Below the pieces are notes generated by a model. It saw only the letters and a program-made list of their open reading frames with translations, searched no databases and had not been told where the DNA came from. Source: Eopsaltria australis (lineage: Eukaryota; Chordata; Aves; Passeriformes; Petroicidae). Taken from it: a stretch of DNA of 64,000 nt. The stretch spans positions 1-64,000 of the forward strand of contig JAVTVJ010001162.1 in NCBI GenBank assembly GCA_034509425.1, read 5' to 3'. Numbering within the stretch: position 1 is the stretch's first letter; every line of letters begins with the position of its first letter. Of this stretch, positions 2,044 through 52,078 are shown one piece after another. The position numbers and the translations under genes were made by a program.

Positions 2044-2186
2044 AGCTGCCCGAGAACTGGACGGACACGCGGGAGACGCTGCTGGAGGGGATGCTCTTCA
2101 GCCTCAAGTACATGGGCATGACCCTGGTGGAGCAGCCCAAGGGGGAGGAGCTCTCTGCAGCCGCTGTCAAGAGGATCGTGGCCACC
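2044..2186 (+). CDS. LDLRAP1: LDLRAP1 exon 2 (start of PTB domain)
   Basis: The acceptor (tgtccccag) ends at 2043 and the donor GTGAGT starts at 2187. The exon begins with AG, completing a lysine codon split by intron 1, then reads LPENWTDTRETLLEGM and onward to VKRIVAT (47 full codons). This is nearly identical to human LDLRAP1 residues from about 31 onward. FSLKYMGMTLVEQPKG is the first strand region of the PTB fold. The exon ends in phase 0. Confidence 0.97.
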
Positions 2187-5100
2187 GTGAGTGTCCCCTG
2201 AGTGTCCCCCGAGTGTCCCTGCTGGCCCCGAGTGTCCCTGCAGGCTCTGCTCTTCGGGGGAGGCTCAGAGCTGCAGCTGGGGCTGGGGGGTCAGGGTTGG
2301 AGGTTTAGGGGGGTCAGGATTTGGAGATCCAAGGGTTCAGGATGGCAGATCCAGGGGGCTAAAGATTGGAAGTCCAGGGGGTCAGAATTCCAGCTCCAGG
2401 GGGATCAAGGATTGCAGGTCCAGGGGTCTCAGAATTGCAGTTCCAGGGGGTCAGGATTGCAGGTTTAGGGGGGTCGGGATTGCAGGTTTAGGTCAGGATT
2501 GCAGGTTTAGGGGGTCAGGGTTGCAGGTTTAGGTCAGGATTGCAGGTTTAGGGGGGTCGGGATTGCAGGTTTAGGTCAGGATTGCAGGTTTAGGGGGTCA
2601 GGGTTGCAGGTTTAGGAGGGGTTCAGGGTTGCAGGTTTAGGGGGTCAGGATTTGGAGCTCCAGTGGCTCAGAATTGCAGCTCCAGTGGCTCAGGGTTGCA
2701 TCTCAGCCCCCCAGGGCTGTGGGTGTGGCTGCAGGCGGTTCCAGGCCCTGGGAAGCGTTGGGATGAGCCCAGCCCTGGGATGAGCCCAGCCTGGGCTGTG
2801 CTGAGCTCTGGCTCCCCTGATAAGCCCGGCTGGCCCTGGGTGTGTGGGGAGGCTCTGACCTGCAGGGATCAGCCTGCCCTGGGCTGGGCCAGCGTTTGGA
2901 GCGGGGCCAGAGCCCCTCGGGCCTTTCCCGCTCAGGATTTGGGGGATTAGAGAGGGGAAGGGAGGGGACAGATCCAGCCAAGGCAGCCCCTGTCCCACTG
3001 TGACCTCAGGGGGGTGGATCCCCAGCCATCCCCTCATTCCCAGCCATCCCCCCTCATTCCCAGCCATCCCCCCTCATTCCCAGCCATCCTCCTCATTCCC
3101 AGCCCATTCCCAGCCCTCTCCCTGTTTCCCAGCACATACGCAGTCATCCCCCCCGATTCCTAGAACATACCCAACCATCCTCCTTATTCCCAGCCCATTC
3201 TCAGCCATCTCTCCTCATCCCCAGCCCATTTCCAGCCCTCTCCCTGTTTCCCACTCCATTCCCAACCATCCCCCCTGACTCCCAGCCCATTCCCAGCCCT
3301 CTCCCTCATTCCCAGCCCATTCCCAGCCCTCTCCCTCATTCCCAGCCCGTTCCCAGCCCTCCCCAGGCTCTCCGTGTAGAATTAAAGCTCCTTTAAGCCC
3401 TTGTAAAAGTGAATGAGGCAGAGCCTTTCACCATCCTAAAGCTCAGTGGGCTGGGAGTGCTGGATCCTCTCCTGGCAGGGGCTGGGCTGGGCCAGGGGAG
3501 CAGGGAATCAGGGAATGAATCCCTCCCTGGAATGGGAGCTGCTGGCAGCTCTGATGCACTGGGAATGGAGCTTTGACTCAAACCCCGGGGCTGGGGCAGC
3601 CTCAGAGGGGCTGGGCTGCTCTGGGCACATCCCAAACAGGGAGTGGGGCTGAGGATTCCAGCCTGGAACTCGCTGGATTGTTTACTTTTGGGGGAAGCAG
3701 AGTGGGAGCTGCAGGCTGAGGGCACCAGGCCTGAAAATGAGAGAAAGTGGCACTGGAAATTCTGCTTTTCAGCTGCTGTCCTGCCCCTGGAGCAGGGGGA
3801 GCACCCCCAGCCCCTGCTCCCGCACCTCTGGAGGTGTCACTGGGGAAAAAACCTAAAATTAAATTAAATTAAAAATTAAAATCCGGCACTTCCCCTCCCT
3901 CCTTGCCTCCCCAAGGCCAAAGCCAGCGGGAAGAAGCTGCAGAAAGTGACCCTGAAGGTGTCACCTCGGGGCATTGTCCTCAACGACAGCAGCACCAACG
4001 AGCTCATCGACAACATCTCCATCTACAGGTGGGTCCGGGGCCGCTCCCCTGGCCTGCTCCTCACCCTTGGCTGCTGCAGGGCAGCTGGGGGACGATTGGG
4101 GTCAATTTAAAACTGATTTACAGTGAGGGGCTGGCAGGCAGAGGGGGCAGAGCCTCCCTGAGCTGGGACTCGGAGCCCCAGGAGGGTCTGGGGCCTCTGA
4201 GAGCCCCAGGAGGGTTTGGAGCCTCTGAGAGCTCCAGGAGGGTTTGGGGCCTCTCCCCAGAGCCCCAGGAGGGTTTGGGGCCTCTCCCCAGAGCCCCAGG
4301 AGGGTTTGGGGCCTCTCCCCGGAGCCCCAGGAGGGTTTGGGGCCTCTCCCCGGAGCCCCAGGAGGGTTTGGGGCCTCTCCCCGGAGCCCCAGGAGGGTTT
4401 GGAGCCTCTCCCCAGGGCTCCAGGAAGGTTTTGTTGTGTCTTTCAGGATCTCCTACTGCACAGCAGACAAGACCCACGACAAAGTGTTTGCCTACATCGC
4501 CCAGAACCAGCTGAATGAGAACCTGGAGTGCCACGCCTTCCTGTGCACCAAGAGGAAGATGGTCAGTGCAGGGAGGAGGAGGAGGAGGCACAGGGGGGCT
4601 GCAGGGCTGGCAGGAGGCTCAGGGAGAGCTGCCAGGGTCCTGCTGCTCCCATCCCAGCTCATCCCAGCTCTGGCTGGGGCTGGATTCTTGTCCTGGGTGG
4701 TAAATCCTCTCTGGGTGAGGCTGAGAGGACCTGGCCCTGCAGCAGCACCTGGGAGCCCCATCCCAGCTGAGCCCCAGAGCCCCTCCCTGTGCTGCCCAGG
4801 GACCCTGCTGGGGACACCCAGGGACCCTGCTGGGGACACCCAGGGACCCTGCTGGGGACACCCAGGGACCCTGCTGGGGACACCCAGGGACCCTGCTGGG
4901 GACACCCAGGCAGCATTCCCGGGCTCCCTGCCCTGGCTGCCAGCCCTGGAGGCTCCATGGGTTCCAGTTTTGAGTTTCCATCTCCCCCCAGGAGACCCCT
5001 CTGTGCTGGGATGGGCTCAGGGCAGAGACCTGGCTGAGGGGGAGAGCCTGGCTCTGGCTCTGAGCTCTCCTGGGATCTTCTCCTGCTGCTCCAGGATGGG

Positions 5101-8100
5101 CAGGACCCAGTGGGAAGAGAGGAGTGGAGTCTGTGGTGGAGCCAGAGCTGGGACTGAGCCCCCTCCCCGTGCCAGGAAGGGCCCTGAGGGCGGAGAAAGG
5201 GCAGAAATCCTCCCCTGGTGCCTCTTGCAGTGAGGGCTGGGATATCCCAGATCCCCTTGTGCATCCCAAGCTGGTCCTTGGGCTGTGCCTGGGATGCTCT
5301 GTTGATATTCTGTGCCTCTCCCAGCTCCTGTTTATCCCTGGGAGACAATAATGGGAGCTCCAAGTTGTCTGTGCTGTCCTCACCCTGTGCTCCCATCCTT
5401 GCACGGCCGAGATGAGCCTGGCTCTGCAAATTCAAATTTAAACCTTCCTGCTGCTAAAAGAATTCTCTCAGTGCAGCATCAGCTCAGTGCAGCCCCCTCC
5501 AAATGAAGTTCTCATGTGGCAAAAAGCTGCAGGAATAATTCCCTTTTTTTCCTGGGTTCTAAAGTGCAGGAATGCTGAGGGTGATCCCTGGTTCCCTGGA
5601 TGCTCCCAGTCACTGCCATGGAATGAATCCACATTTTTAGTTCCTGGGTGATGCTCAGCGCTGGCTGGGTCTATTAAACTTGATTCAGATGTGACAGCTG
5701 AAATGGTAAACAGCTGTGAGGAGTTTCATCCTTCATTACCATATTTAAGGGTTTTTTTTGCCATAAAGCATTTGCACTCCCATCAAGGATGTAAACAGCT
5801 CTGCCATGCAAATGAGCTCCTGCCAGCCTTAATTGGCACCGCTGGCCCCGGGGGTCTCCTGGGGGCCCTGCCTGGGGGCCCTGCCTGCCTTTTGGGGGTG
5901 CTGTGCCCTGGGAGGTGCCAGGGGTGCAGCTCTGGGGGGTTCCAGCCCCAGTTCAGGCCTCTCCCGGGGTGTTGGGAGCCCCCTCACCCCGTTCTGTGTC
6001 CCCTGCAGGCTCAGGCTGTCACCCTCACCCTGTTCTGTGTCCCCTGCAGGCTCAGGGTGTCACCCTCACCCTGTTCTGTGTCCCCTGCAGGCTCAGGGTG
6101 TCACCCTCACCCTGTTCTGTGTCCCCTGCAGGCTCAGGCTGTCCCCCTCACCCTGTTCTGTGTCCCCTGCAGGCTCAGGCTGTCACCCTCACCCTGTTCT
6201 GTGTCCCCTGCAGGCTCAGGCTGTCACCCTCACCCTGTTCTGTGTCCCCTGCAGGCTCAGGGTGTCACCCTCACCCTGTTCTGTGTCCCCTGCAGGCTCA
6301 GGGTGTCACCCTCACCCTGTTCTGTGTCCCCTGCAGGCTCAGGCTGTCACCCTCTGCTCTCTGTGTCCCCTGCAGGCTCAGGCTGTCACCCTCACCCTGT
6401 TCTGTGTCCCCTGCAGGCTCAGGCTGTCACCCTCACCCTGTTCTGTGTCCCCTGCAGGCTCAGGCTGTCACCCTCACCCTGTTCTGTGTCCCCTGCAGGC
6501 TCAGGCTGTCACCCTCACCCTGTTCTGTGTCCCCTGCAGGCTCAGGGTGTCACTCTCTCCTCTCTGTCCCCTGCAGGCTCAGGCTGTCACCCTCACCGTG
6601 GCTCAGGCTTTCAAAATCGCCTTCGAGTTCTGGCAGGCAGCAAAGGAAGGTGAGCTTCGTCCCCTCCAGCCCCAGGGCTGATTCTGGTGTTTTTCCAGCT
6701 CTCAGGAGCCTTTTCCCCCTCCCTGCCTCCCGAATTTCCAGGTTTCCCTGTAAATCCAGGCAGGTTCTGCCTGTGCTCCTTGGCTGCTGGAGCCCCCCTG
6801 GGATTTCTGCTCCCACCTTCCCTGGGGTGATGGCAGCCCCCCCCCCCCCCCGAGGTGGCCTGGCCTGGCCTGGTGTCCCCAGCCCTGTCCCCAAAGCTGG
6901 CAGCACTGATGGGGCTCCCTCCTTTTGCAGAGAAGGAGAAGAGGGAAAGATCCATCCTGGAGGCAGAAGGGACGAGCAGCCCTGGGTCAGGAACTGCTGC
7001 TCACCCTGGCACACGTGAGGCACCTGGGCAGGGCTGGGGATAGGGGATGGGGACAGGGGAGGGGTGTGGAATTGTCCCAGACTGGGCAGGGGACTTGAGG
7101 GATGGGGAATTGTCCCTAAACAGGGCAGGGAACAGCCTGAGGGATGGGGATTGTCACAGCCTGAGGGATTTTCCCCAAACAGGGCAAGCTCTGAAGGCCT
7201 GGAGGAGCAGCACTTCAGAGTTCCCGGCTGCATCCCCCAAATCTGCCCAGCCCCAATCCAGGCTGCCCTGCCCCAGGCTCTCTGGCTGTGATGTCCTTCG
7301 TGGGCTCAGCCTGGATCTGCACACCCCAAGCTCAGTTTTGGGGTTTTGTCAGACCCCAAACCCCCCCCATGCCCTGAGGGGGGGGATGGACACCCAGGTG
7401 TCCCTGAGGAAGGGGAGGTGAAATCAAACAATTCAATATTAAATCTCCTGGTCCAGGGCCTGGCCCTGGCTCCTCTGCTGCCTCCAAAGTGGGGCAAGAG
7501 GCTGATCCCAGGAGATAAGAGGATTTGGCAGGGAGGAAAACAGCTTTAAACTGGGCTTGCCTCCAGGCTGGCACATCCTGCTGCTCCCCAGGGAGGCTCA
7601 GCCCTCCAGGAATCTCCGGGATGAGCCCAGCCTGGGGCTGCAGGGATGGGCTCAGCACCTCCCTGGTGCTCCTGCAGCCACCCCAGTGAGGGCTGCTGGG
7701 GAGGCTCAGGGCTTCCCAAGGGCAGGATTTGCCCTCAGTCCTATCAAACACCCAGAGAGCTCTGTTATTTTTTTATTATTATTATTTCAGATGTTGTGGG
7801 CTGAGCTGAGGGGGTGGGGATGGGCTGGGGCTCGTCCTGGACACGAGTGGGGCAGCCAGGAGCGTTCCCAAGGGCTGCTGGAGGGATGGGGCTCCCCTGC
7901 ATCCCTGCTGGGAGCTGCTGGACAATCCCCAGCCCCTCCTGGGGTCCTCAGAGCTCGGATCCCTGCAGGAATTACTGCAGGAATTACTGCGGGAGCTGCA
8001 GCCCCTGGCTCCTCTCTCAGGGAGGGGGTTCCTGCAGGAAGGTCTGGCCGTGGTTCTGCTGCTCTCCCCTCACTCCCTCTCCTCTGTGCCCTCAGCAGCA

Positions 8101-11026
8101 GCCACGGGGACCCTGCTGGACCTGGAGGAGCCTGGCAGGACCCACCTGGGCAGCCCCAGGGAGCCCCCAGGGCTGGACAACAGCAGCAGCAGCAGCAGCA
8201 GCTTGGGGCCCAGCCCCTCGGTCAACAACAACGTGCTGTGGGTAAGGCACAGCCAGGGCTGCTCCAGTTCCCAGCCCAGGGCTGATACTGGGAAAACTGG
8301 GAGCTCTGGGGTGGCTGAGATGCTCAGGGATGCTCCAGCTCCCAGCCTAGGGCTGATACTGGGATAACTGGGAGCTCTGGGGTGGCTGAGATGCTCAGAG
8401 GCTGCCAGGGGTTCTCCAGTTCCCAGCCCAGGGCTGATACTGGGATGGACTGGGAGCTCTGGGGTGGTTGAGCTGCTCAGGGAGGTTTCCAGGGATGCTC
8501 CAGCTGCCATCCCAGGGCTTTACTGGGCTGAACTGGATTCTCTGATCACCAGCCAGGCTGAGCCTTGAAGCCCCCCTTGCCCTGGGGTCTCTCCCCCTCA
8601 CAGCCCCTGCCTGCTGGACTTTGGGGAATTGCAGGATTTGGGGAATTGCTCCCTGCCTTTCCAGGTTAAAGCTGAAGATGAGCTCTGAGCCTGGATCAGG
8701 TCCTGGAGGCTCAGCAGCAATCTGCAGCCCCTGCCTGCTCACAGGGTTCATGCTTCACTTTTTCCTGGCATTAATGCTGGAATTGCATCTCAGGATTTGG
8801 GAACAGCCCGGCCTGGCCGTGGCAAATCCTCACCCAGAGCATGGAAAACCCTTCCCAACAAGTCCAGCTTTCCCTGGGAATCCCTGGGAGCAGAGCAGAG
8901 GGAAAGGGCCCCAGAGCTGCTCTCCCTGACCCTGGAGCTCTGTCCTGGCCCCTCCTCAGAGCAGGAGCTGCAGAGCTGGGAGCGTGAGGGGTTCATGAAT
9001 CCTGGGATGGATCTGGGGCAGAAGCAGCCTGTTGGGAGAGGCAGGGAAAGGACCTGGGAACACCTGGAATTCACCTGGTCCGGAGGGAGGGGACAGAGAT
9101 TGGAGAGGAGGTGGTGGAGGGAAAGGTCTGAACTCAGGGATCACCTGGAATTCACCTGTTCCAGTAGGAGGGCAGGCAGATTGGAGAGGAGATGATGGAG
9201 GGAAAGGACTGAACTCTGGGAACACCTGGAATTCAGCTGTTCCACAGGGAGGGGAGAGAGATTGGAGAGGAGGTGATGGAGGGAAAGGATCGAGCCCTGG
9301 GATCACCTGGAATTCAGCTGTTCCAGATTGCAGGGGAGGTGGTGGAGGCTCTCACAAACCAACAGACACAGATATTGTGTGTGTGTGTGTGAGAGCAGAG
9401 CCAGAGCCCTGAATTCACTCGGAATTCACTTCTGTGCAGTTCTCTTAGCAACTCCTTGTCTCTCTCTTTATCTCCTGACAAAGGAAATGGATGATGGGCT
9501 CGACGAGGCGTTCTCAAGGTAATTCTCACGATTCTCCCTGCTCCAGCTCAGCCCCAGAGCCTTGACTGGGGGCTGCCTTTTAATAAAGCTCCTTAATCTA
9601 ATCAGGGCCGTGATCTGACCCAGGCAGCTGCCCCATCTCAGCCTCAGCTGGTAATTGAAAGATTGGCTTTGAGGCTGCCTGATAAGCCAAATATTTTGAC
9701 AACCTTTTAAGGCTGGAGAGAGGCTGTGTGTGATGGGGAATTTGATTCCCCGAGCAGTTCCTGTCTCTGCTCCCACTCACTGAGGTTTTTTCAGGCTGCT
9801 GGGCCCAGCTTCTGGCACTGGGGGGCCACGAATTCAGGGTGTGTGGCCACCAGTTCCTGGGGTTTATTCCTCTTCCCACTCCAAGTTAAAGCTTTCCCTG
9901 CCCGTGCCTGCTGAGCAGCCCAGCAAAGCCAAACAATCCCTTTTGTTTCCTTTCTGCTGGGTTTTCCTGCCTGTCCTGGCAGGGTTTGTGTGGGTCCCAT
10001 CCTCCTCTTCCTCCCCCTGGGGCTGGGAGGTGCAGGAGGAGGGGGTGAGGCAGGAGGAGGCTTTGCAGCAGCTCCTGCTCAGCCCTCGGGGTCTGGTTTG
10101 GGGCTCGGGGATGATTTGCAGTTTCCTTGGCCCAGGCTGATTTCTGTGCTGCTCTCTCTGTTCCCTGCCCCTCTCCCTGCCCCTTCCAAGGGCTCTTCAG
10201 GGCAGTTTTTGGGCTGTGTTGAGCATTTTTGGGTGCTGAGCTGTCACATCCCCCTCGGCCCTCTGGTGACTCAGAGTTTGGGCTGCTCATCCTCCCGAGC
10301 TCCTTCCTGCCACATCATCACCGCTGCACATTTCTCCCCTTTAATCCCCAATTTTTAATAATCTCAGGCTTTTTGGGACGTTGTGGCTCCCCTGGATGAA
10401 CCCCCAAGAGTCTGGGTGAGCCCCCAGCCCCGGTGCTGCAGAGTTTTCGCTGTGGTGTTCAAACCACACAGCAGCAAACCGGGGCTGCTCGGGGTTTGTG
10501 AAACATCTGGGGCTGCAAAGCCTCTCCCAGCTGCTCCCGGGGCTGCTCCACATCAGCTGAGCCCTCCCGGGCCAGGGCAGAGCCGCTGGGGCAGAGCTGA
10601 GTCACTGCTCAGAGGAGCCAGAGCAGCTCCCGGGATGGCTCTGGGGAGGAGAGCCCCGTGAAATCCGGGATGTGCACATTCCCGGGATGCCTGCAGGGGA
10701 AATGCTGGGAGGAGGCAGAGCTGAGCAGGGTGGGAGGGCCGGGAATGCTCAGGGCCAGCTCCCCCCGGGCTGATTCCATCCCTTGGAGGGTGCGGGGATG
10801 TGGAGCTGGCAGTGCTGGGGCTTGTGCAGAGCCTGATTTTGTGTCTTTAGTGATTTTTCTGTGTTCCTGTGCCCTCCCCAGGCTGGCCCAGTCGAGGACA
10901 AACCCGCAGGTGCTGGACACGGGGCTGACAGCTCAGGACATGCAGAGTGCAGAGACTTTGTCCCCTGTGGACTGGAACCAAATGGAGCCCAGCGTGGCTG
11001 ACAAGGACGATCTGTTCATGTTCTGA
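2044..11026 (+). CDS. LDLRAP1: LDLRAP1 coding region, exons 2-9 (5' partial)
   Basis: Low density lipoprotein receptor adapter protein 1 (ARH) is a cytosolic adaptor. Its PTB domain binds FxNPxY tails of LDL-receptor family proteins and PI(4,5)P2, and its C-terminal half recruits clathrin and AP-2 for endocytosis. Eight exons join in frame: 2044-2186, 3916-4028, 4447-4561, 6577-6649, 6931-7014, 8096-8241, 9484-9518 and 10882-11026. All introns are GT-AG. They give 283 residues; the roughly 30 residues of exon 1 are outside the window, so the total is near the human 308. The PTB domain is encoded by exons 2-5, the clathrin box LLDLEE by exon 7, and the AP-2 beta-appendage motif DEAFSRLAQSR by exons 8-9. 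The linker between clathrin box and AP-2 motif is poorly conserved and contains seven serines encoded by AGC repeats. Introns are short and loaded with minisatellites. Identity is by recall of the human protein and is very secure. Confidence 0.97.
2281..2695 (+). repeat. Degenerate G-rich minisatellite with TTTAGGGG cores
   Basis: About 20 copies of a roughly 20-23-bp unit (gattgcaggtttaggggg and variants) just after the exon 2 donor. About ten units contain TTTAGG or TTTAGGGG, which resembles telomeric repeat sequence but is interrupted by gtcaggattgcagg. Confidence 0.85.
3017..3366 (+). repeat. C-rich degenerate tandem repeat (attcccagcc)
   Basis: Tandem, imperfect repeats of a 10-15-bp motif such as cattcccagcc and ccctctccctc in LDLRAP1 intron 2. 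The block is strongly pyrimidine-biased on the + strand. No coding role is evident; exon 3 follows 550 bp downstream. Confidence 0.8.
3916..4028 (+). CDS. LDLRAP1: LDLRAP1 exon 3 (PTB domain)
   Basis: The acceptor AG is at 3914-3915 and the donor GTGGGT starts at 4029. The exon reads AKASGKKLQKVTLKVSPRG and on to NISIY, 37 codons plus AG of a split arginine codon. It corresponds to the PTB strands in which the human protein has ILTDNLTNQLIENVSIYR. The bird version IVLNDSSTNELIDNISIYR is a conservative variant. Confidence 0.96.
4185..4432 (+). repeat. 31-bp minisatellite abutting LDLRAP1 exon 4
   Basis: About eight copies of a unit reading gagccccaggagggtttggg then gcctctcccca. Early units are shorter. 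The array fills most of the 418-nt intron 3 and stops about 15 nt before the exon 4 acceptor at 4446, so it occupies the expected branch-point region. Each full unit contains CTCTCCCCAG, an acceptor-like string. Confidence 0.92.
4447..4561 (+). CDS. LDLRAP1: LDLRAP1 exon 4 (PTB domain)
   Basis: The acceptor (gtgtctttcag) ends at 4446 and the donor GTCAGT starts at 4562. The first G completes the arginine codon, followed by ISYCTADKTHDKVFAYIAQ to CTKRKM. The TADK..DKVFAYIA and ECHAFLCTKRK stretches are typical of the ARH PTB domain, where the beta5 strand and its surroundings contact the FxNPxY peptide. The intron just before this exon is only 418 nt and more than half of it is minisatellite. 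Confidence 0.97.
4797..4909 (+). repeat. 21-bp minisatellite, five copies
   Basis: Five nearly perfect copies of a 21-bp unit with the core ggaccctgctggggacaccc in intron 4 of LDLRAP1. Because 21 is a multiple of three, long open frames on both strands run through it; they are by-products. Confidence 0.93.
5980..6597 (+). repeat. 41-bp minisatellite copying the exon 5 splice acceptor
   Basis: Fifteen acceptor-like junctions ctgcag|gctcagg place exon starts at 6009, 6050, 6091, 6132, 6173, 6214, 6255, 6296, 6337, 6376, 6417, 6458, 6499, 6540 and 6577 (the real one). Spacing is 41 bp except for one of 39 and the last of 37. Each unit carries a pyrimidine tract (ctgttctgtgtcccctgcag) plus the first 21 coding bases of exon 5, which encode AQAVTLT. 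That peptide is conserved in human, so the exon edge is the source. Confidence 0.95.
6577..6649 (+). CDS. LDLRAP1: LDLRAP1 exon 5 (C-terminal helix of PTB domain)
   Basis: The acceptor (tctgtcccctgcag) ends at 6576 and the donor GTGAGC starts at 6650. The exon reads AQAVTLTVAQAFKIAFEFWQ then AAKE, matching the human C-terminal PTB helix, and ends in phase 1. I chose this acceptor because it is the last of 15 near-identical ones and gives the human-like junction KRKM/AQAV. The acceptor copies starting exons at 6499 (+26 codons) and 6376 (+67 codons) are also in frame and stop-free, so longer isoforms are formally possible. Confidence 0.93.
6931..7014 (+). CDS. LDLRAP1: LDLRAP1 exon 6 (linker)
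   Basis: The acceptor (ccttttgcag) ends at 6930 and the donor GTGAGG starts at 7015. AG completes a glutamate codon, then KEKRERSILEAEGTSSPGSG and TAAHPGT follow. Only the first five or six residues (EKEKR) match the human protein; the rest is a divergent hydrophilic linker. Length (84 nt) and phase fit the human exon. Confidence 0.85.
8096..8241 (+). CDS. LDLRAP1: LDLRAP1 exon 7 (clathrin box, polyserine)
   Basis: The donor GTAAGG starts at 8242. The acceptor is a triple NAG (CAGCAGCAG ending at 8095, 8098 and 8101); all three are in frame and differ by one residue each. The first was chosen, without proof. The product contains ATGTLLDLEE, the type I clathrin box (human ATGNLLDLEE), then a divergent proline/glycine linker, seven serines, and NNNVLW just before the AP-2 motif in the next exon. 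Confidence 0.88.
8182..8202 (+). repeat. (AGC)7 microsatellite coding polyserine
   Basis: Seven uninterrupted AGC codons inside LDLRAP1 exon 7 encode seven serines in the unstructured linker. The human linker has no such run as I recall it. Length polymorphism would be expected. Confidence 0.95.
8258..8520 (+). repeat. Tandem repeat of about 70-80 bp, three to four copies
   Basis: Copies share cccagggctgatactggga and actgggagctctggggtgg followed by ctgagatgctcag. It begins about 16 nt after the exon 7 donor of LDLRAP1. Copies are diverged by insertions. Confidence 0.8.
9061..9345 (+). repeat. 81-bp tandem repeat, about 3.5 copies
   Basis: The anchor cacctggaattca recurs at 9061, 9142, 9223 and 9304, an exact 81-bp period. 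Units also share gattggagaggaggtg and gagggaaagg. The array lies in LDLRAP1 intron 7, about 140 bp before the 35-nt exon 8. Confidence 0.9.
9484..9518 (+). CDS. LDLRAP1: LDLRAP1 exon 8 (35-nt exon, AP-2 binding motif)
   Basis: A very short exon between the acceptor AAAG (ends at 9483) and donor GTAATT (starts at 9519). It reads EMDDGLDEAFS plus AG of a split arginine codon. Together with the next exon it forms DEAFSRLAQSR, the helical motif (acidic-F-xx-[FL]-xxx-R) that docks on the AP-2 beta2 appendage. Human has ELDDGLDEAFSR. Confidence 0.95.
10882..11026 (+). CDS. LDLRAP1: LDLRAP1 exon 9, terminal coding part with stop
   Basis: The acceptor (ccctccccag) ends at 10881. G completes the arginine codon, followed by LAQSRTNPQVLDTGLTAQDM, then SPVDW and the C-terminus DKDDLFMF with TGA at 11024-11026. 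Human ends in EQDDLFSF, so the conserved acidic-LF C-terminus is kept. A minisatellite starts 18 nt after the stop codon. Confidence 0.97.
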
Positions 11027-11044
11027 GGGAAACCACTCCCAGGT

Positions 11045-11540
11045 CAGCCTGGACTGTGCTGGTCAGCCAGGACTGTGCTGATGGTCAGCCTGGACTGTGC
11101 TGATGGTCAGCCTGGACTGTGCTGATGGTCAGCCTGGACTGTGCTGATGGTCAGCCTGGACTGTGCTGGTGGTCAGCCTGGACTGTGCTGGTGGTCAGCC
11201 TGGACTGTGCTGGTCAGCCTGGTCTGTGCTGGTGATCAGCCTGGACTGTGCTGGTCAGCCTGGACTGTGCTGGTCAGCCTGGACTGTGCTGATGGTCAGC
11301 CTGGACTGTGCTGGTGGTCAGCCTGGACTGTGCTGGTGGTCAGCCTGGACTGTGCTGGTCAGCCTGGTCTGTGCTGGTGATCAGCCTGGACTGTGCTGGT
11401 CAGCCTGGACTGTGCTGGTCAGCCTGGACTGTGCTGATGGTCAGCCTGGACTGTGCTGGTCAGCCTGCTCTGTGCTGGTCAGCCTGGACTGTGCTGGTGG
11501 TCAGCCTGGACTGTGCTGGTCAGCCTGCTCTGTGCTCATC
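11045..11540 (+). repeat. 19/22-bp minisatellite in the LDLRAP1 3' UTR
   Basis: About 24 copies of cagcctggactgtgctggt, with a 3-bp longer variant ending gctgatggt or gctggtggt. A run of about seven units is itself duplicated with a 145-bp offset (compare 11163 onward with 11308 onward). Each unit has CAGC and GCTG arms that could form a small hairpin in RNA. It starts 18 nt after the stop codon. Confidence 0.93.
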
Positions 11541-25757: not shown

Positions 25758-26324
25758 ATGGTGGTGCTGCGGAAGCTGCCGGGCATGCCGGGCTGGCCGG
25801 CGGCGCTGGGGCTGCGGCTGCCGCAGAAGTTCCTGTTCCTGCTCTTCCTCTCGGGCCTGCTCACGCTCTGCTTCGGGGCCCTGTTCCTCCTGCCCGATTC
25901 CTCCCGCTTCAAGCGCCTCTTCCTACCCCGCCGGGCCACCGCCTCCGCCTCCTCTTCATCCTCCGCCTCCTCGTCCTCAGCCTCCTCCTCCTCCACCCGC
26001 GACACCGAGCTGCCCCGCAGCCCCCCCGCCGCCGCCGAGCCCCGCCACGCCAGCCCCGCCGCCCCGCGCCGCCTGCGGGAGAAGCTCCGCACGGCCGCCC
26101 GCATGGCCGGGCCGCCGGCCCGCACCGCGCCCGGCTCCCGGCAGCAGGTGCAGGGCGGCCAGAGCCCGGCCCAGCCCGCCAGCGCCGCGCCCCCGGCCCG
26201 CCACACGCGCGCCCCGTTCCGCTTCGACTACGAGCGGTTCCGCCGGAGCCTCCGGCACCCGGTGCGGGGCGAGCGATCCGGAGAGGACCCCGAGACCCGC
26301 GGCCGCAGGATGAAGATCAAAGAG
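25758..26324 (+). CDS. MAN1C1: MAN1C1 coding exon 1 (tail, signal anchor, stem)
   Basis: ATG at 25758 (context ccccATGg) opens 189 codons ending at the phase-0 donor GTGGGT (starts 26325). It is the first in-frame ATG; the frame is open further upstream but without an ATG. Residues 1-24 are the cytosolic tail (with LRLPQK as in human) and about 25-45 the single membrane anchor (FLFLLFLSGLLTLCFG...). Residues 46-59 are DSSRFKRLFLPRRA-like, then a serine-rich stretch (about 62-79) and a proline/alanine/arginine-rich stem. APFRFDYERFRRSLRHPV at about 152-169 matches the human VPFRFDFNAFRSRLRHPV region, and the exon ends in KIKE as in human. The serine run differs from human and is likely lineage-specific. 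Confidence 0.95.
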
Positions 26325-41300: not shown

Positions 41301-43409
41301 CCCAGGCAGCTCTGCCAGCGTGGCTGGGTTCACCCTGCACCTCCTGGGATGGAGGGGTTAAAGAAGCTGAGGGAAGGAAATGACTTTAAATTTCATACTC
41401 AGCTTAAAACAACTCAGAATTACAGCGTTAGGAGTTTTAAGGGAACAAAACAGAATCATTTCCACATCCTCTGCAGGGCCAGGCTCCCCGTGTGCCAGAA
41501 GGGTGGGTCCTCCTTCCTCAGCTCTGATTGAGGAGAGAAAGCAGCCCAGGAGGTGCCTGGCAGTTTCCTCTTGGTGCAGGAGCCCTGCTGTGGGAATGCT
41601 GTCCTTAAAGACTCCGTCCTTCCTGCTGCCAGCTCCAGCATCCAGCCCTGACACAGAAAAACCTTCGCTCTGCCTCGTCCAGAGAGAGGCCAGAGCTCCT
41701 CAGAGATTCACCCTGTGATGTTCATGAAGAATGGGAACTTCCCATTTAGAATCTGCTGCCACTGGGGAAAAAAAAAAAACCCAGAGATTTGGCAAAAATA
41801 AAGTGAACACCCCGAGTCATATGACTGGGACATGTTGGAGTGCATTTTGTGGAGGGTTCCTTCCCCCTCCCTGGGTCATTATTTCGTTTCCTCAGAGCTC
41901 TCCACTGACTAATTCATCCCACACTGAGTTTTTAAACCCCAAATTGGTTTTATTTGTTTGTCCAGCATTCCATCTCCCGGTGGTGTTGGAGCCTGGGTGT
42001 TATCAATCAGCTCAGCAAATGTTTGTCCTCCTCCATGTGAGCAGCTCCAGGGAACTTTACTTTGGAAGCTTCGTGTTTAAAAAGGAGGGGGGGGAATCTG
42101 GGGATGTGGCTTTTTGCTAATTAAGGAGGATACTGCCAGGGGCTTGTGATGTTGGGTTTTGTGAAACACACAGCTGGAGGGAAGAGTAAGAGCTGAGAGA
42201 TGACAGGAGGAATTTCAGACCAAAGCAACCTGCAGATTCTGATCCTGAAATAGAGCAGCAAACGCTGCCGCAGCCACGAGGCGGGAGCGCTCTGTGGAGG
42301 AAGGATTTGGTTTAAACTGTCATTTTCCCCTCAAAAGTCTGGTCTGAGGGAAGCATTTCAGGCTTCTCTTATCCTTGCTGGAGAACCTGGTTGATTCTCT
42401 GAAGCCCCTTCTTCCCCTTTGTTATCTTTTTTTCCCAGGGATTGAATCAAAGGATGTTCAGGTCAGTGCGACGCTGGGCTGGAACTGCTCAGAGCCAGGC
42501 TGGGGGGGTAGGAAAGGCAGCTTTATTAAGGCACTCCTTAGAAGCTGACAAGTCCCAGTCTCTCCCAGATGAAGAAAGGACACTTGTAGGTTTAATTTTT
42601 CCTCCCAGCTGGAGCCAGAGGGGCAGGAGGGACAGAAAAAGCTGCTCTGGGCTCTGTGTGTGTGTTGGAACTTGCACAAGCACTGCCCCTCAGCCCCCAG
42701 GGGAAGGCTGGGGTGCTGGGCCTGGGCAGGACGGGTCAAACATCCCAAAAGGAATTGTTTGAGTTGGAAGGGATTGCTCAGAAATCACCCAGCCCATGTG
42801 CAGAGCTCTCTGAAGAAAGCACTGTGGAGTTGTGATAGAACATAACAAAATGTCATGGGTTTGGCCTTTGTGAATGTGTTCTGTTAATTAATGGAATGGA
42901 AACCTTTCTGCAGTCCCTAAGGCCAGTTTCTCCCTGTTCTTAGGGACAGATCAGCTTTGGCCTTACACTTTCAGACTATTTTATACCCATTCTGAAATAT
43001 TGATGCTCTCTGAAAAAGGCTGGAAATTCAGAGATGGAGAGAGCTTTCTGCAAGTCCCACTTGGCTTGCAGGGCCAAGGGAAAAGGGGTTTTTGGTGTGG
43101 GATGTGCCAGGTTCTTCAGCAGAAAGGATGAGCTGGAGACTTCAGCCAGCCTCTGGATGCAGCCCCACTCCTCGTGCCCAGTGGGAATTAAGGTTTTATA
43201 ATGAACGGGCCGTGGGTTTGGCAATGAGTGGGAAACTCCCATGGATTCCCAGAGCTGAGCTCTGAGAATTCCCAGCTCTGCTGACTGTTCCCATTCCCTT
43301 TTCCCCCCTCAGATGATGAAGTTTGCCTGGGATAACTACAAGCAGTACGCGCTGGGGAAGAACGAGCTGCGCCCGCTGACCAAGAACGGCCACATCGGGA
43401 ACATGTTCG
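25758..43409 (+). CDS. MAN1C1: MAN1C1 coding region, exons 1-2 (3' partial)
   Basis: Mannosyl-oligosaccharide 1,2-alpha-mannosidase IC is a Golgi type II membrane enzyme of glycoside hydrolase family 47 that trims Man9 N-glycans toward Man5. Only the first two coding exons are inside the window (25758-26324 and 43313-43409), giving 221 complete codons of about 630 in human. Exon 1 supplies the cytosolic tail, membrane anchor and stem; exon 2 starts the catalytic domain (MMKFAWDNYKQYALGKNELR). The catalytic acidic residues lie in exons outside the window. The closest alternatives, MAN1A1 and MAN1A2, have different N-termini and a different sequence after the NELKP motif, so MAN1C1 is favoured. 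Position right after LDLRAP1 matches human 1p36. Confidence 0.95.
26400..26990 (+). repeat. Degenerate C-rich tandem repeat at the start of MAN1C1 intron 1
   Basis: Imperfect repeats built from cctcagtcagccctcac, ctcccctcacagccgtgtcc and similar blocks. Unit length varies, roughly 30-60 bp. It continues the CpG-rich exon into the intron, with CpG lost along the way. Open frames through it are by-products. Confidence 0.7.
27019..27345 (+). repeat. 46-bp minisatellite, seven copies
   Basis: Units share gtgtcccttgctccctcatt then tcccaaggaaggtggcagga and attggg. The period is 46 bp with 1-bp slips; a few copies have tggtccct or gtaattgg. It lies about 700 bp after the MAN1C1 exon 1 donor. Confidence 0.95.
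28320..28620. other. AT-rich intron block, candidate regulatory element
   Basis: Low-GC, non-repetitive sequence containing TTAATTATTTTTTAAAT, GACAGCTAATTACTCC and CATAAATATTAG. TAATTA-type homeodomain sites and the lack of repeats are what conserved noncoding elements often look like. This is a visual impression only. Confidence 0.25.
36568..36785 (+). repeat. 45-bp minisatellite, about five copies
   Basis: Units share ggggattttggggaggagct then gatgggttctgctgctgtcc and tttgg. The first two copies have gggcagg in place of ggggagg, and the last copy has ctggtgggttctgg. It lies in MAN1C1 intron 1. Confidence 0.95.
38030..38230. other. AT-rich intron block, candidate regulatory element
   Basis: Unique sequence with gacacgcttaaatctag, gcattaggaatttaattagg and tgttagtttaattgtggc, that is several TTAATT/TAATTA cores. 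No coding potential. Possible enhancer; needs cross-species alignment. Confidence 0.25.
42740..42800 (-). mobile_element. Possible small CR1 remnant, antisense
   Basis: The string gaattgtttgagttggaagg followed by gattgctcagaaatcaccca resembles the antisense CR1 3' end (gagttggaagggacct...). It is only about 60 bp, so it may be chance. Confidence 0.35.
43313..43409 (+). CDS. MAN1C1: MAN1C1 coding exon 2 (start of GH47 domain)
   Basis: The acceptor (cttttcccccctcag) ends at 43312 and the donor GTGAGT starts at 43410. The exon reads MMKFAWDNYKQYALGKNELR then PLTKNGHIGNMF plus the first G of a split glycine codon. Human MAN1C1 has MMQFAWQNYKRYAMGKNELR at the same place, directly after KIKE. The phases (0 in, 1 out) fit exon 1. 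The following exon, expected to begin with GLxGAT, is not in the window. Confidence 0.96.
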
Positions 43410-49428: not shown

Positions 49429-50399
49429 CAGGCAGCAGACACACCCCCCTCAATTAGCAGCGACAGGAGTTGCTCTGTGGATCTGTGACAGAGGAGAGGT
49501 AATTGAATGAAAATATTAATTCTGCAATATCCCAACCAGCAGAAGAGAAACAGGAACCTCCAATTGTGCAATCACTCGCTGCACCTTCCCTCTTCTGTCT
49601 CTGGGTCTCTCTCCCTGTGATCACAAAATTGCAGAACCCTGGAGAGTCCTTTTATGTGATTAAAATAATAATAATAATGATGGCTCTCTTAATTTCTGTG
49701 CTGAATTATGCCTGCTGCCTATTGCACATGACATTGGATGCTTGGCTCCATGGGCTCTTTAAAGAGAAAAATACCTTGTAATGAAGATGTTGCTGGAACT
49801 CTGTTGCTCCCTGGCATCATCATCTCTTTTTTTTTTTGCTTTTTTCATGTGTAATGTTCCCCAGGTGAATAATTTTCAGGAGGGCATTTTGAGCTGACTT
49901 TGGCTTTTGCTGTCAGTGAAATCTGCAGCAGCAAACTTCTTTCCTGGCAGCAGGGAACCAGGATGTGCTCCAAGTCCCAAACTCAGTGAGTTTGGCTGTG
50001 TTGGAGCTGACATTGATCCCTGTTGTGGGGATTTTCCCCTGTTTTGAGATCACTCCCAAGCTAATTAATCCTTCAGGAGATCTGTCTCACCTTGGGCCCT
50101 GCTGGCATCCCCAAACATCGGGGTTCCACTGAACCCTAAACCCCACCCAGGGTTGATTGCAGGGGCTGAGCTGACTCCTCAGCTTGAAATATTCATTATT
50201 TAAAAAGTTTAAACAGAAAAACCCCAATGTTTCAGAGTGGCCTCCAGCCCTCCTCAAGCACCTTTGCATCCAGCCCTGGTTCTGGGGCTGGGCTGGGCAG
50301 TGACTGTTGGAAAAATGTCATTTGAAATGAGGGGATTCGTGCTGGATTTCCATCCTAGCAAGGAAATAAAGTCAGGAGAACTGGGGGGAGAAGCTGGGA

Positions 50400-50822
50400 C
50401 CTGAGAGCCCAAACTGGGGGATCTAAGAGCCCAAACTGGGAGATCTGAGAGCCCAAACTGGGGGATGTGAGAGCCCAAACTGGGGAATCTGAGAGCTCAA
50501 ACTGGGGGATCTGAGAGCCCAAACTGGGGGATCTGAGAGCCCAAACTGGGGGATCTGAGAGCCCAAACTGGGGGATCTGAGAGCCCAGACTGGGGGATCT
50601 GAGAGCCCAAACTGGGGGATGTGAGAGCTCAAACTGGGGGATCTGAGAGCCCAAACTGGGGGAATCTGAGAGCCCAAACTGGGGGATGTGAGAGCCCAAA
50701 CTGGGGGATCTGAGAGCCCAAACTGGGGGATCTGAGAGCCCAAACTGGGGGATCTCAGAGCCCAAACTGGGAGATCTGAGAGCCCAAACTGGGGGATCTG
50801 AGAGCCCCGACTGGGGGATTTG
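50400..50822 (+). repeat. 22-bp minisatellite, left arm of an inverted pair
   Basis: About 19 copies of ctgagagcccaaactggggg plus at, with few substitutions (ctaagagc, tgagagctc, cccagactg) and one 1-bp insertion near 50660. The same unit occurs as its reverse complement at 51602-52078. Confidence 0.97.
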
Positions 50823-51601: not shown

Positions 51602-52078
51602 ATCCCCCAGTCTGAGCTCAGATCCCCCAGTCTGGGCTCTGAGATCTCCCAGTCTGGACTCTGAGATCCCCCAGTCTGGGCTCTGAGATCCCCCAGTTCG
51701 AGCTCAGATCCCCCAGTTTGGGCTCTAAGATCCCCCAGTTTGAGCTCTGAGATCTCCCAGTCTGGGCTCTCAGATCCCCCAGTTTGAGCTCTCAGATCCC
51801 CCAGTTTGGGCTCTGAGATCTCCCAGTTTGAGCTCTCAGATCCCCCAGTCTGAGCTCTCAGATCTCCCAGTTTGGGCTCTCAGATCCCCCAGTTTGGGCT
51901 CTGAGATCCCCCAGTTTGGGCTCTCAGATCCCCCAGTCTGGGCTCTCAGATCTCCCAGTCTGGGCTCTCAGATCTCCCAGTTTGAGCGCTCAGATCCCCC
52001 AGTTTGAGCTCTCAGATCCCCCAGTTTGGGCTCTCAGATCCCCCAGTTTGGGCTCTCAGATCCCCCAGATCTCAGATC
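51602..52078 (-). repeat. 22-bp minisatellite, right arm of an inverted pair
   Basis: About 21 copies of agatcccccagtttgggctc plus tc, the exact reverse complement of the 50400-50822 unit, with variants tctcccagt, tctgagctc and tctgggctc. Unique sequence of about 780 bp separates the two arrays. Confidence 0.97.

What the first reader, a model, noticed from the sequence alone, without database searches (positions are those of the whole stretch)
5980..6649. A minisatellite has amplified the splice acceptor and first coding bases of LDLRAP1 exon 5
Seen: 14 upstream copies of pyrimidine tract + CAG + the first 21 bases of exon 5, at 41-bp spacing, ending at the true exon. The copied peptide AQAVTLT belongs to the PTB domain and is conserved in human, so the exon edge is the source. 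Every copy is a credible 3' splice site. Those starting at 6499 and 6376 are in frame and stop-free (+26 and +67 codons inserted into the PTB domain); the others shift frame. The spliceosome must choose the last of 15 near-identical acceptors. The last unit differs just before the acceptor (ctctctcctctctgtcccct), which may mark it out. Copy number could change exon choice between individuals.
Basis: partly seen in the sequence, partly recalled or inferred. Interest (0 to 1): 0.75.

Follow-up and report, generated by a model that had tools for sequence, protein, structure and literature searches.

The report
Exon-edge minisatellite before LDLRAP1 exon 5
In a bird gene for a cholesterol-receptor adaptor, a 41-base stretch covering the start of one exon and its splicing signal has been copied about fourteen times into the neighbouring intron; it is a clean example of a kind of repeat growth already described in chickens and lancelets, and whether the copies ever disturb splicing is untested.

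Summary
Fifteen CTGCAG|GCTCAGG acceptors lie at 6009-6577. The array (5981-6597) runs 21 bp into LDLRAP1 exon 5 (6577-6649). The copied edge AQAVTLT stands in 119 of 120 listed relatives, so the exon is the source. All 14 extended frames cross the array without a stop; by the 50-55-nt rule none would be a decay target.

The kind is known: "exon stuttering" in chicken (Hron et al. 2026) and "mirages" in amphioxus. The array meets the published screen, just: 7 hits exactly at the 42.1-bit cut-off; shuffles reach 24.3. Arrays fill 29% of the gene, and random placement puts 2.4 across exon edges against 1 seen.

Most likely: slippage between an 8-base match in intron and exon, 41 bp apart, started an array that grew neutrally, while the terminal acceptor, with the best pyrimidine tract and the place nearest the exon 5 donor, keeps most splicing (inference). 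Splice use, copy-number variation and sister-species introns could not be tested.

The parts
5981..6597 (+). 41-bp tandem array spanning the intron 4 / exon 5 border, 15.2 copies
   Evidence: TRF; unit listing
6009..6576 (+). 14 upstream copies, each with CTGCAG and a copy of the first 21 bases of exon 5 (7 exact, 7 with one to three mismatches); acceptors at 6009, 6050, 6091, 6132, 6173, 6214, 6255, 6296, 6337, 6376, 6417, 6458, 6499, 6540
6540..6576 (+). last, divergent 37-bp unit: gives the true acceptor its longer pyrimidine run (13 against 6 in the other copies)
6577..6649 (+). true exon 5 of LDLRAP1 (AQAVTLTVAQAFKIAFEFWQAAKE), end of the PTB domain; its first 21 bases are the source of the copies
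4447..4561 (+). LDLRAP1 exon 4; the donor at 4562 could pair with any of the 15 acceptors
5981..5988 (+). CCCTCACC in the intron, 28 bases before the first acceptor; the same 8 bases lie at exon position 14, 41 bp apart (candidate seed of the first duplication)
   Evidence: read by eye; the role is inference
6590..6597 (+). the exonic CCCTCACC in exon 5, right-hand limit of the array
2044..11026 (+). LDLRAP1 coding exons 2-9 with introns (exons 2044-2186, 3916-4028, 4447-4561, 6577-6649, 6931-7014, 8096-8241, 9484-9518, 10882-11026); 29% covered by tandem arrays

Best explanation
It is an exon-stuttering ('mirage'-type) minisatellite. Shown from sequence: a 41-bp unit made of the last 20 bases of intron 4 and the first 21 bases of LDLRAP1 exon 5 stands in 14 tandem copies in the intron, ending at the real exon. 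Inferred: the first duplication arose by slippage or unequal exchange between CCCTCACC in the intron and the same 8 bases in the exon, 41 bp apart; later rounds, one probably of a 5-unit block, enlarged it, with no selected role. Inferred: the copies stay intronic in most transcripts because the terminal acceptor has the strongest pyrimidine tract and is the one that makes the normal 73-nt exon with the exon 5 donor. Some use of upstream acceptors is likely as noise.
For: Array and source. The exon-stuttering screen of Hron et al. (method read), run on this gene's 8 exons and its introns in the window, gives 12 hits of 20 bases or more, all exon 5 bases 1-21 against intron 4; 7 reach the cut-off of 42.1 (all at exactly 42.1), 5 score 34.2; the best of 100 shuffles is 24.3. 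The rest of the gene is normal and open, and 116 of 120 listed relatives join the exon 4 end directly to AQAV. Arrays fill 29% of the gene, and random placement gives 2.4 arrays over exon edges against 1 seen (P of one or fewer 0.27), so an exon-edge array is what this neighbourhood yields. Terminal acceptor 7.8 bits against 6.3 and pyrimidine run 13 against 6. Unit types run A B B A* A, A B B A' A in units 1-10, which suggests a 5-unit duplication. In amphioxus, mirages with splice signals are reported not to give aberrant mRNA.
Against: The terminal acceptor's advantage is small (1.5 bits on a recalled table), and 13 of 15 acceptors, but not the true one, have a CTCAC branch-point-like motif in the unit. 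Predicted RNA folding hides the true AG about as much as the copies (unpaired probability 0.02-0.07 against 0-0.05 for copies 2-14) and leaves the first copy most open (0.28-0.67), so folding gives no support for terminal choice. The seven screen hits only just reach the cut-off. The chicken orthologue lies on chromosome 23, not a dot chromosome, where most exon stuttering was found. Microhomology as seed is inferred from one sequence.
Confidence: 0.82

Rival explanations
1. The array is used: upstream acceptors are spliced at real levels, making LDLRAP1 proteins with 26, 67, 80, 121 or 162 extra residues before the PTB C-terminal helix, or frame-shifted proteins without that helix, in amounts that depend on copy number.
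For: All 14 copies score as good acceptors, above 6 of 7 other acceptors of the gene. All 14 extended isoforms are open through the array, and their stops lie 24 nt before the last junction, in the last exon, or at the normal stop, so by the 50-55-nt rule (recalled) they would escape decay. The first copy re-supplies the AQAVTL-type edge, so the PID match keeps 60.6, 59.9 and 54.5 bits in the three isoforms tested, cut after exon 6.
Against: A region search for the array peptide found no protein at E<=0.001 among the 7993 candidates scored (capped list, proteins of 0.55-1.75 times the query length). 116 of 120 listed relatives have no insert. Openness is ordinary: 2554 of 5000 shuffled units are open in all three frames. 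Amphioxus mirages are reported as silent.
Confidence: 0.1
2. Assembly or sequencing artefact: the copy number, or the array itself, was made by repeat handling in the assembly.
For: Reads could not be examined; long arrays of near-identical units are hard to assemble; the own-genome search did not complete.
Against: Units 4, 9 and 14 carry private changes, many arrays of other units stand in the same window, and one case of the kind, chicken PHF8, was verified by raw nanopore reads. Copy number may still be off.
Confidence: 0.05
3. An intronic minisatellite that resembles the exon start by convergence, not derived from it.
For: The window is rich in unrelated minisatellites.
Against: Seven copies match 21 exon bases exactly from base 1, in register with the splice site; shuffles give nothing near.
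Confidence: 0.01

Closest known systems
Exon stuttering / sequence stuttering, chicken (Hron et al. 2026, PMC12954441; read: abstract, sections 7, 9 and 16, part 1 of 2 of section 8, and passages)
   Same: Tandem copies of the edge of a coding exon with its splice site, inside the adjacent intron, starting at the exon border, in a GC-rich bird gene with other intronic arrays. The paper's ranges (exon part 20-187 bp, 1-44 copies, span 112-23,555 bp) include this case.
   Different: Mostly on dot chromosomes (190 of 236 introns); the chicken LDLRAP1 region is on chromosome 23. LDLRAP1 is not named in the paper's main text; its supplementary gene list was not seen.
Mirages, amphioxus Adh, globin, troponin C and PGBD5 genes (PMC3087553 and PMC3902484, passages only; the original Adh paper was not seen)
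   Same: Minisatellite-like tandem duplication of an intron-exon boundary, including acceptors; unit 10-72 bp in Adh3.
   Different: Cephalochordate; there RT-PCR suggested normal splicing, here splicing is untested.
Ordinary avian intronic minisatellites
   Same: The same gene holds 12 further array blocks that do not span an exon edge.
   Different: Of the gene's 13 blocks only this one contains coding bases.

Membership tests
Exon stuttering (Hron et al. [quoted passage not shown]
Exon stuttering (Hron et al. 2026) | blastn-short hit of at least 20 bases, not below 42.1 bits, in a proximal intron | tested here: met
   7 of 12 hits at exactly 42.1 (21 bases, 100%), so only just; the other 5 at 34.2; 100 shuffles reach at most 24.3
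Exon stuttering (Hron et al. [quoted passage not shown]
   12 of 12 hits cover exon bases 1-21
Exon stuttering (Hron et al. 2026) | Location on a dot chromosome (strong tendency, not a rule: 46 of 236 introns are elsewhere) | tested here: inconclusive
   own chromosome unknown; LDLRAP1 and MAN1C1 are neighbours here, and both are listed for chicken chromosome 23
Exon stuttering (Hron et al. 2026) | Intron length varies among individuals | not testable with these tools
   no reads or second genome; own-genome search did not complete
Amphioxus mirage | Minisatellite-like tandem duplication spanning an exon-intron boundary | tested here: met
Amphioxus mirage | Does not disturb normal splicing | not testable with these tools
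   no RNA data
Amphioxus mirage | Found in cephalochordates | tested here: not met
   best protein relatives are passerine birds

The most novel reading that the evidence does not exclude
The array is a copy-number-tunable acceptor ladder: each allele adds a different set of usable 3' splice sites, and because no extended isoform is predicted to be destroyed, individuals would carry measurable amounts of PTB-domain length variants or helix-less LDLRAP1, so that minisatellite length would modulate LDL-receptor uptake.
Probability: 0.07. Interest if true: 0.75.

Novelty: new member of a known kind. Interest (0 to 1): 0.4.

Why it matters
It is a very regular natural test of how the spliceosome tells a real acceptor from 14 near-identical ones spaced 37-41 bp apart, in a gene whose loss causes recessive hypercholesterolaemia in people (recalled). 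It also suggests that exon stuttering, described mainly for chicken dot chromosomes, reaches a chromosome-23-type region in another bird. The 41-bp spacing of an 8-base match offers a testable account of how such arrays begin.

Tried and rejected
RNA folding as the reason for terminal choice: rejected, the true AG is about as paired as the copies. Stop codons or mRNA decay as a safety net: rejected, no predicted decay target among 14. Three-frame openness as a sign of coding selection: rejected, 2554 of 5000 shuffled units are open too. Array peptide in known proteins: none at E<=0.001 among 7993 scored candidates. Exon stuttering in the neighbour MAN1C1 (exons 1 and 2 against the intron between them and the stretch after exon 2): 0 hits of 20 bases or more, first with borders a few bases off, then with corrected borders. 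Papers on duplicated acceptors or VNTR branch points: one search listed 1 paper (not read), none. LDLRAP1 exon borders first read slightly wrong were redone.

Full report
What is there. The window holds LDLRAP1 exons 2-9 on the + strand, followed by MAN1C1 (start codon near 25758, exon 1 ending 26324, exon 2 at 43313-43409; gene name from a recalled human sequence). The best relatives of the joined LDLRAP1 protein are passerine birds, at up to 89% identity, so the window is very probably a passerine. In chicken, LDLRAP1 and MAN1C1 are both listed for one association at 2.47 Mb of chromosome 23 (PMC9412053, passages).

The array. TRF gives 5981-6597, period 41, 15.2 copies, 95% matches. Fifteen CTGCAG|GCTCAGG sites run from 6009 to the true exon 5 start at 6577, with steps of 41 bp in 12 of 14 and of 39 and 37 in the other two. 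The 19-base core is found 15 times without mismatch against 0.19 expected with up to 3. No 20-mer of the array is elsewhere in the window. The exon edge is the source: of the 120 relatives listed (out of 1418 matched), 119 have AQAV before TLT(V/I)AQAF, and in 116 it follows the exon 4 end directly. One has no such motif, and three gene models (Apteryx owenii, Pycnonotus jocosus, Platysteira castanea) read other sequence before it, with one AQAV copy each. If those stretches are the end of intron 4, these three birds lack the array next to the exon; but two of the models skip exon 4 and all are predictions, so this is weak evidence.

Frames. All 14 extended frames are open through the array. 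Followed to the end of the gene, the stops lie 24 nt before the last junction (+1 frame), in the last exon (+2 frame) or at the normal stop. By the 50-55-nt rule (recalled) none would be a decay target. This openness is not remarkable: 2554 of 5000 shuffled units are open in three frames. The insertion site lies inside the PID match, residues 19-141, after residue 124. In three extended isoforms tested (cut after exon 6) the PID match ends at residue 126-131 with 54.5-60.6 bits, against 66.9 for the normal protein. The first copy thus re-supplies the AQAVTLT strand, and what is displaced or lost is the C-terminal helix (helix recalled from PTB domains in general).

Splice sites. On a simple recalled frequency table the 14 copies score 6.3 bits and the true site 7.8; the other seven acceptors of the gene score 8.0, 5.4, 5.1, 3.7, 2.8, 2.0 and -2.4. 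Of 100 AGs at 4600-5980 in intron 4, one reaches the copies' score (6.5 at 4992). The true site has a pyrimidine run of 13 against 6 in every copy. Thirteen of 15 acceptors have CTCAC upstream in the unit, all but 6376 and the true 6577; its A is at -23 in the two checked. So the true site has the better tract but a poorer branch-point match. Folding does not favour it. By eye no GT in the unit is a good donor (contexts), so the copies should lengthen exon 5 and not form small exons.

How it probably arose. The array is bounded on the left by CCCTCACC in the intron (5981-5988) and on the right by CCCTCACC in exon 5 (6590-6597). In a single copy these start 28 bases before and 13 bases after the border, 41 bp apart (read). 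Slippage or unequal exchange between them would duplicate precisely this unit; this is inference. Units 1-5 and 6-10 show the same order of variants (A B B A* A; A B B A' A, with different private changes in A* and A'), which suggests a later 5-unit duplication. The neighbourhood is prone to arrays: 29% of the gene and 15.5% of the window. Random placement of the gene's 13 array blocks, this one at its present length included, puts on average 2.4 across an exon edge; one is seen. The exon-edge array therefore needs no special cause beyond array density.

What is known. Hron et al. 2026 (PMC12954441; abstract, sections 7, 9 and 16, part 1 of section 8, and passages; [quoted passage not shown] They note that splice sites are copied and may give alternative transcripts, and that 183 of 192 such introns vary in length. 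Their screen, run here on LDLRAP1, gives 7 hits exactly at the 42.1-bit cut-off and 5 below it (34.2); the best of 100 shuffles is 24.3. LDLRAP1 does not occur in that main text; the supplement was not available. In amphioxus, mirages are the same kind of structure and are reported not to disturb splicing (PMC3087553 and PMC3902484, passages). Paper searches on this topic. None was aimed at LDLRAP1 in passerines, so I do not claim that this instance is unpublished.

Verdict. A real, clean exon-edge minisatellite; a new member of a known kind, probably off the dot chromosomes. Neutral origin with mostly normal splicing is the best-supported reading (0.82). Use of the copies is open (0.1) and testable by RNA reads.

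Noticed in passing
682-1383: A 32-bp array upstream of LDLRAP1 exon 2 whose unit holds the donor-like motif CAG|GTGAGG: 10 exact CAGGTGAG here, 13 on the + strand of the whole window. If exon 1 lies just upstream it could be a donor-side counterpart; exon 1 was not found in the window.
   Followed up: partly
2188-2245: An 11-bp array (TGAGTGTCCCC) begins at the second base of intron 2, so it abuts exon 2 without copying coding bases.
   Followed up: no
50396-50819 and 51602-52068: The same 22-bp minisatellite stands twice in opposite orientation, arms up to 268 nt at 92% complementarity with about 1.1 kb between, downstream of MAN1C1 exon 2.
   Followed up: partly
11042-11536: A 20-22-bp array (GGTCAGCCTGGACTGTGCTG) starts 16 bases after the last base of the LDLRAP1 stop codon, in the presumed 3' UTR.
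   Followed up: no
8096-8101: Exon 7 of LDLRAP1 begins with CAGCAG after an AG, a possible NAGNAG tandem acceptor one codon apart.
   Followed up: no
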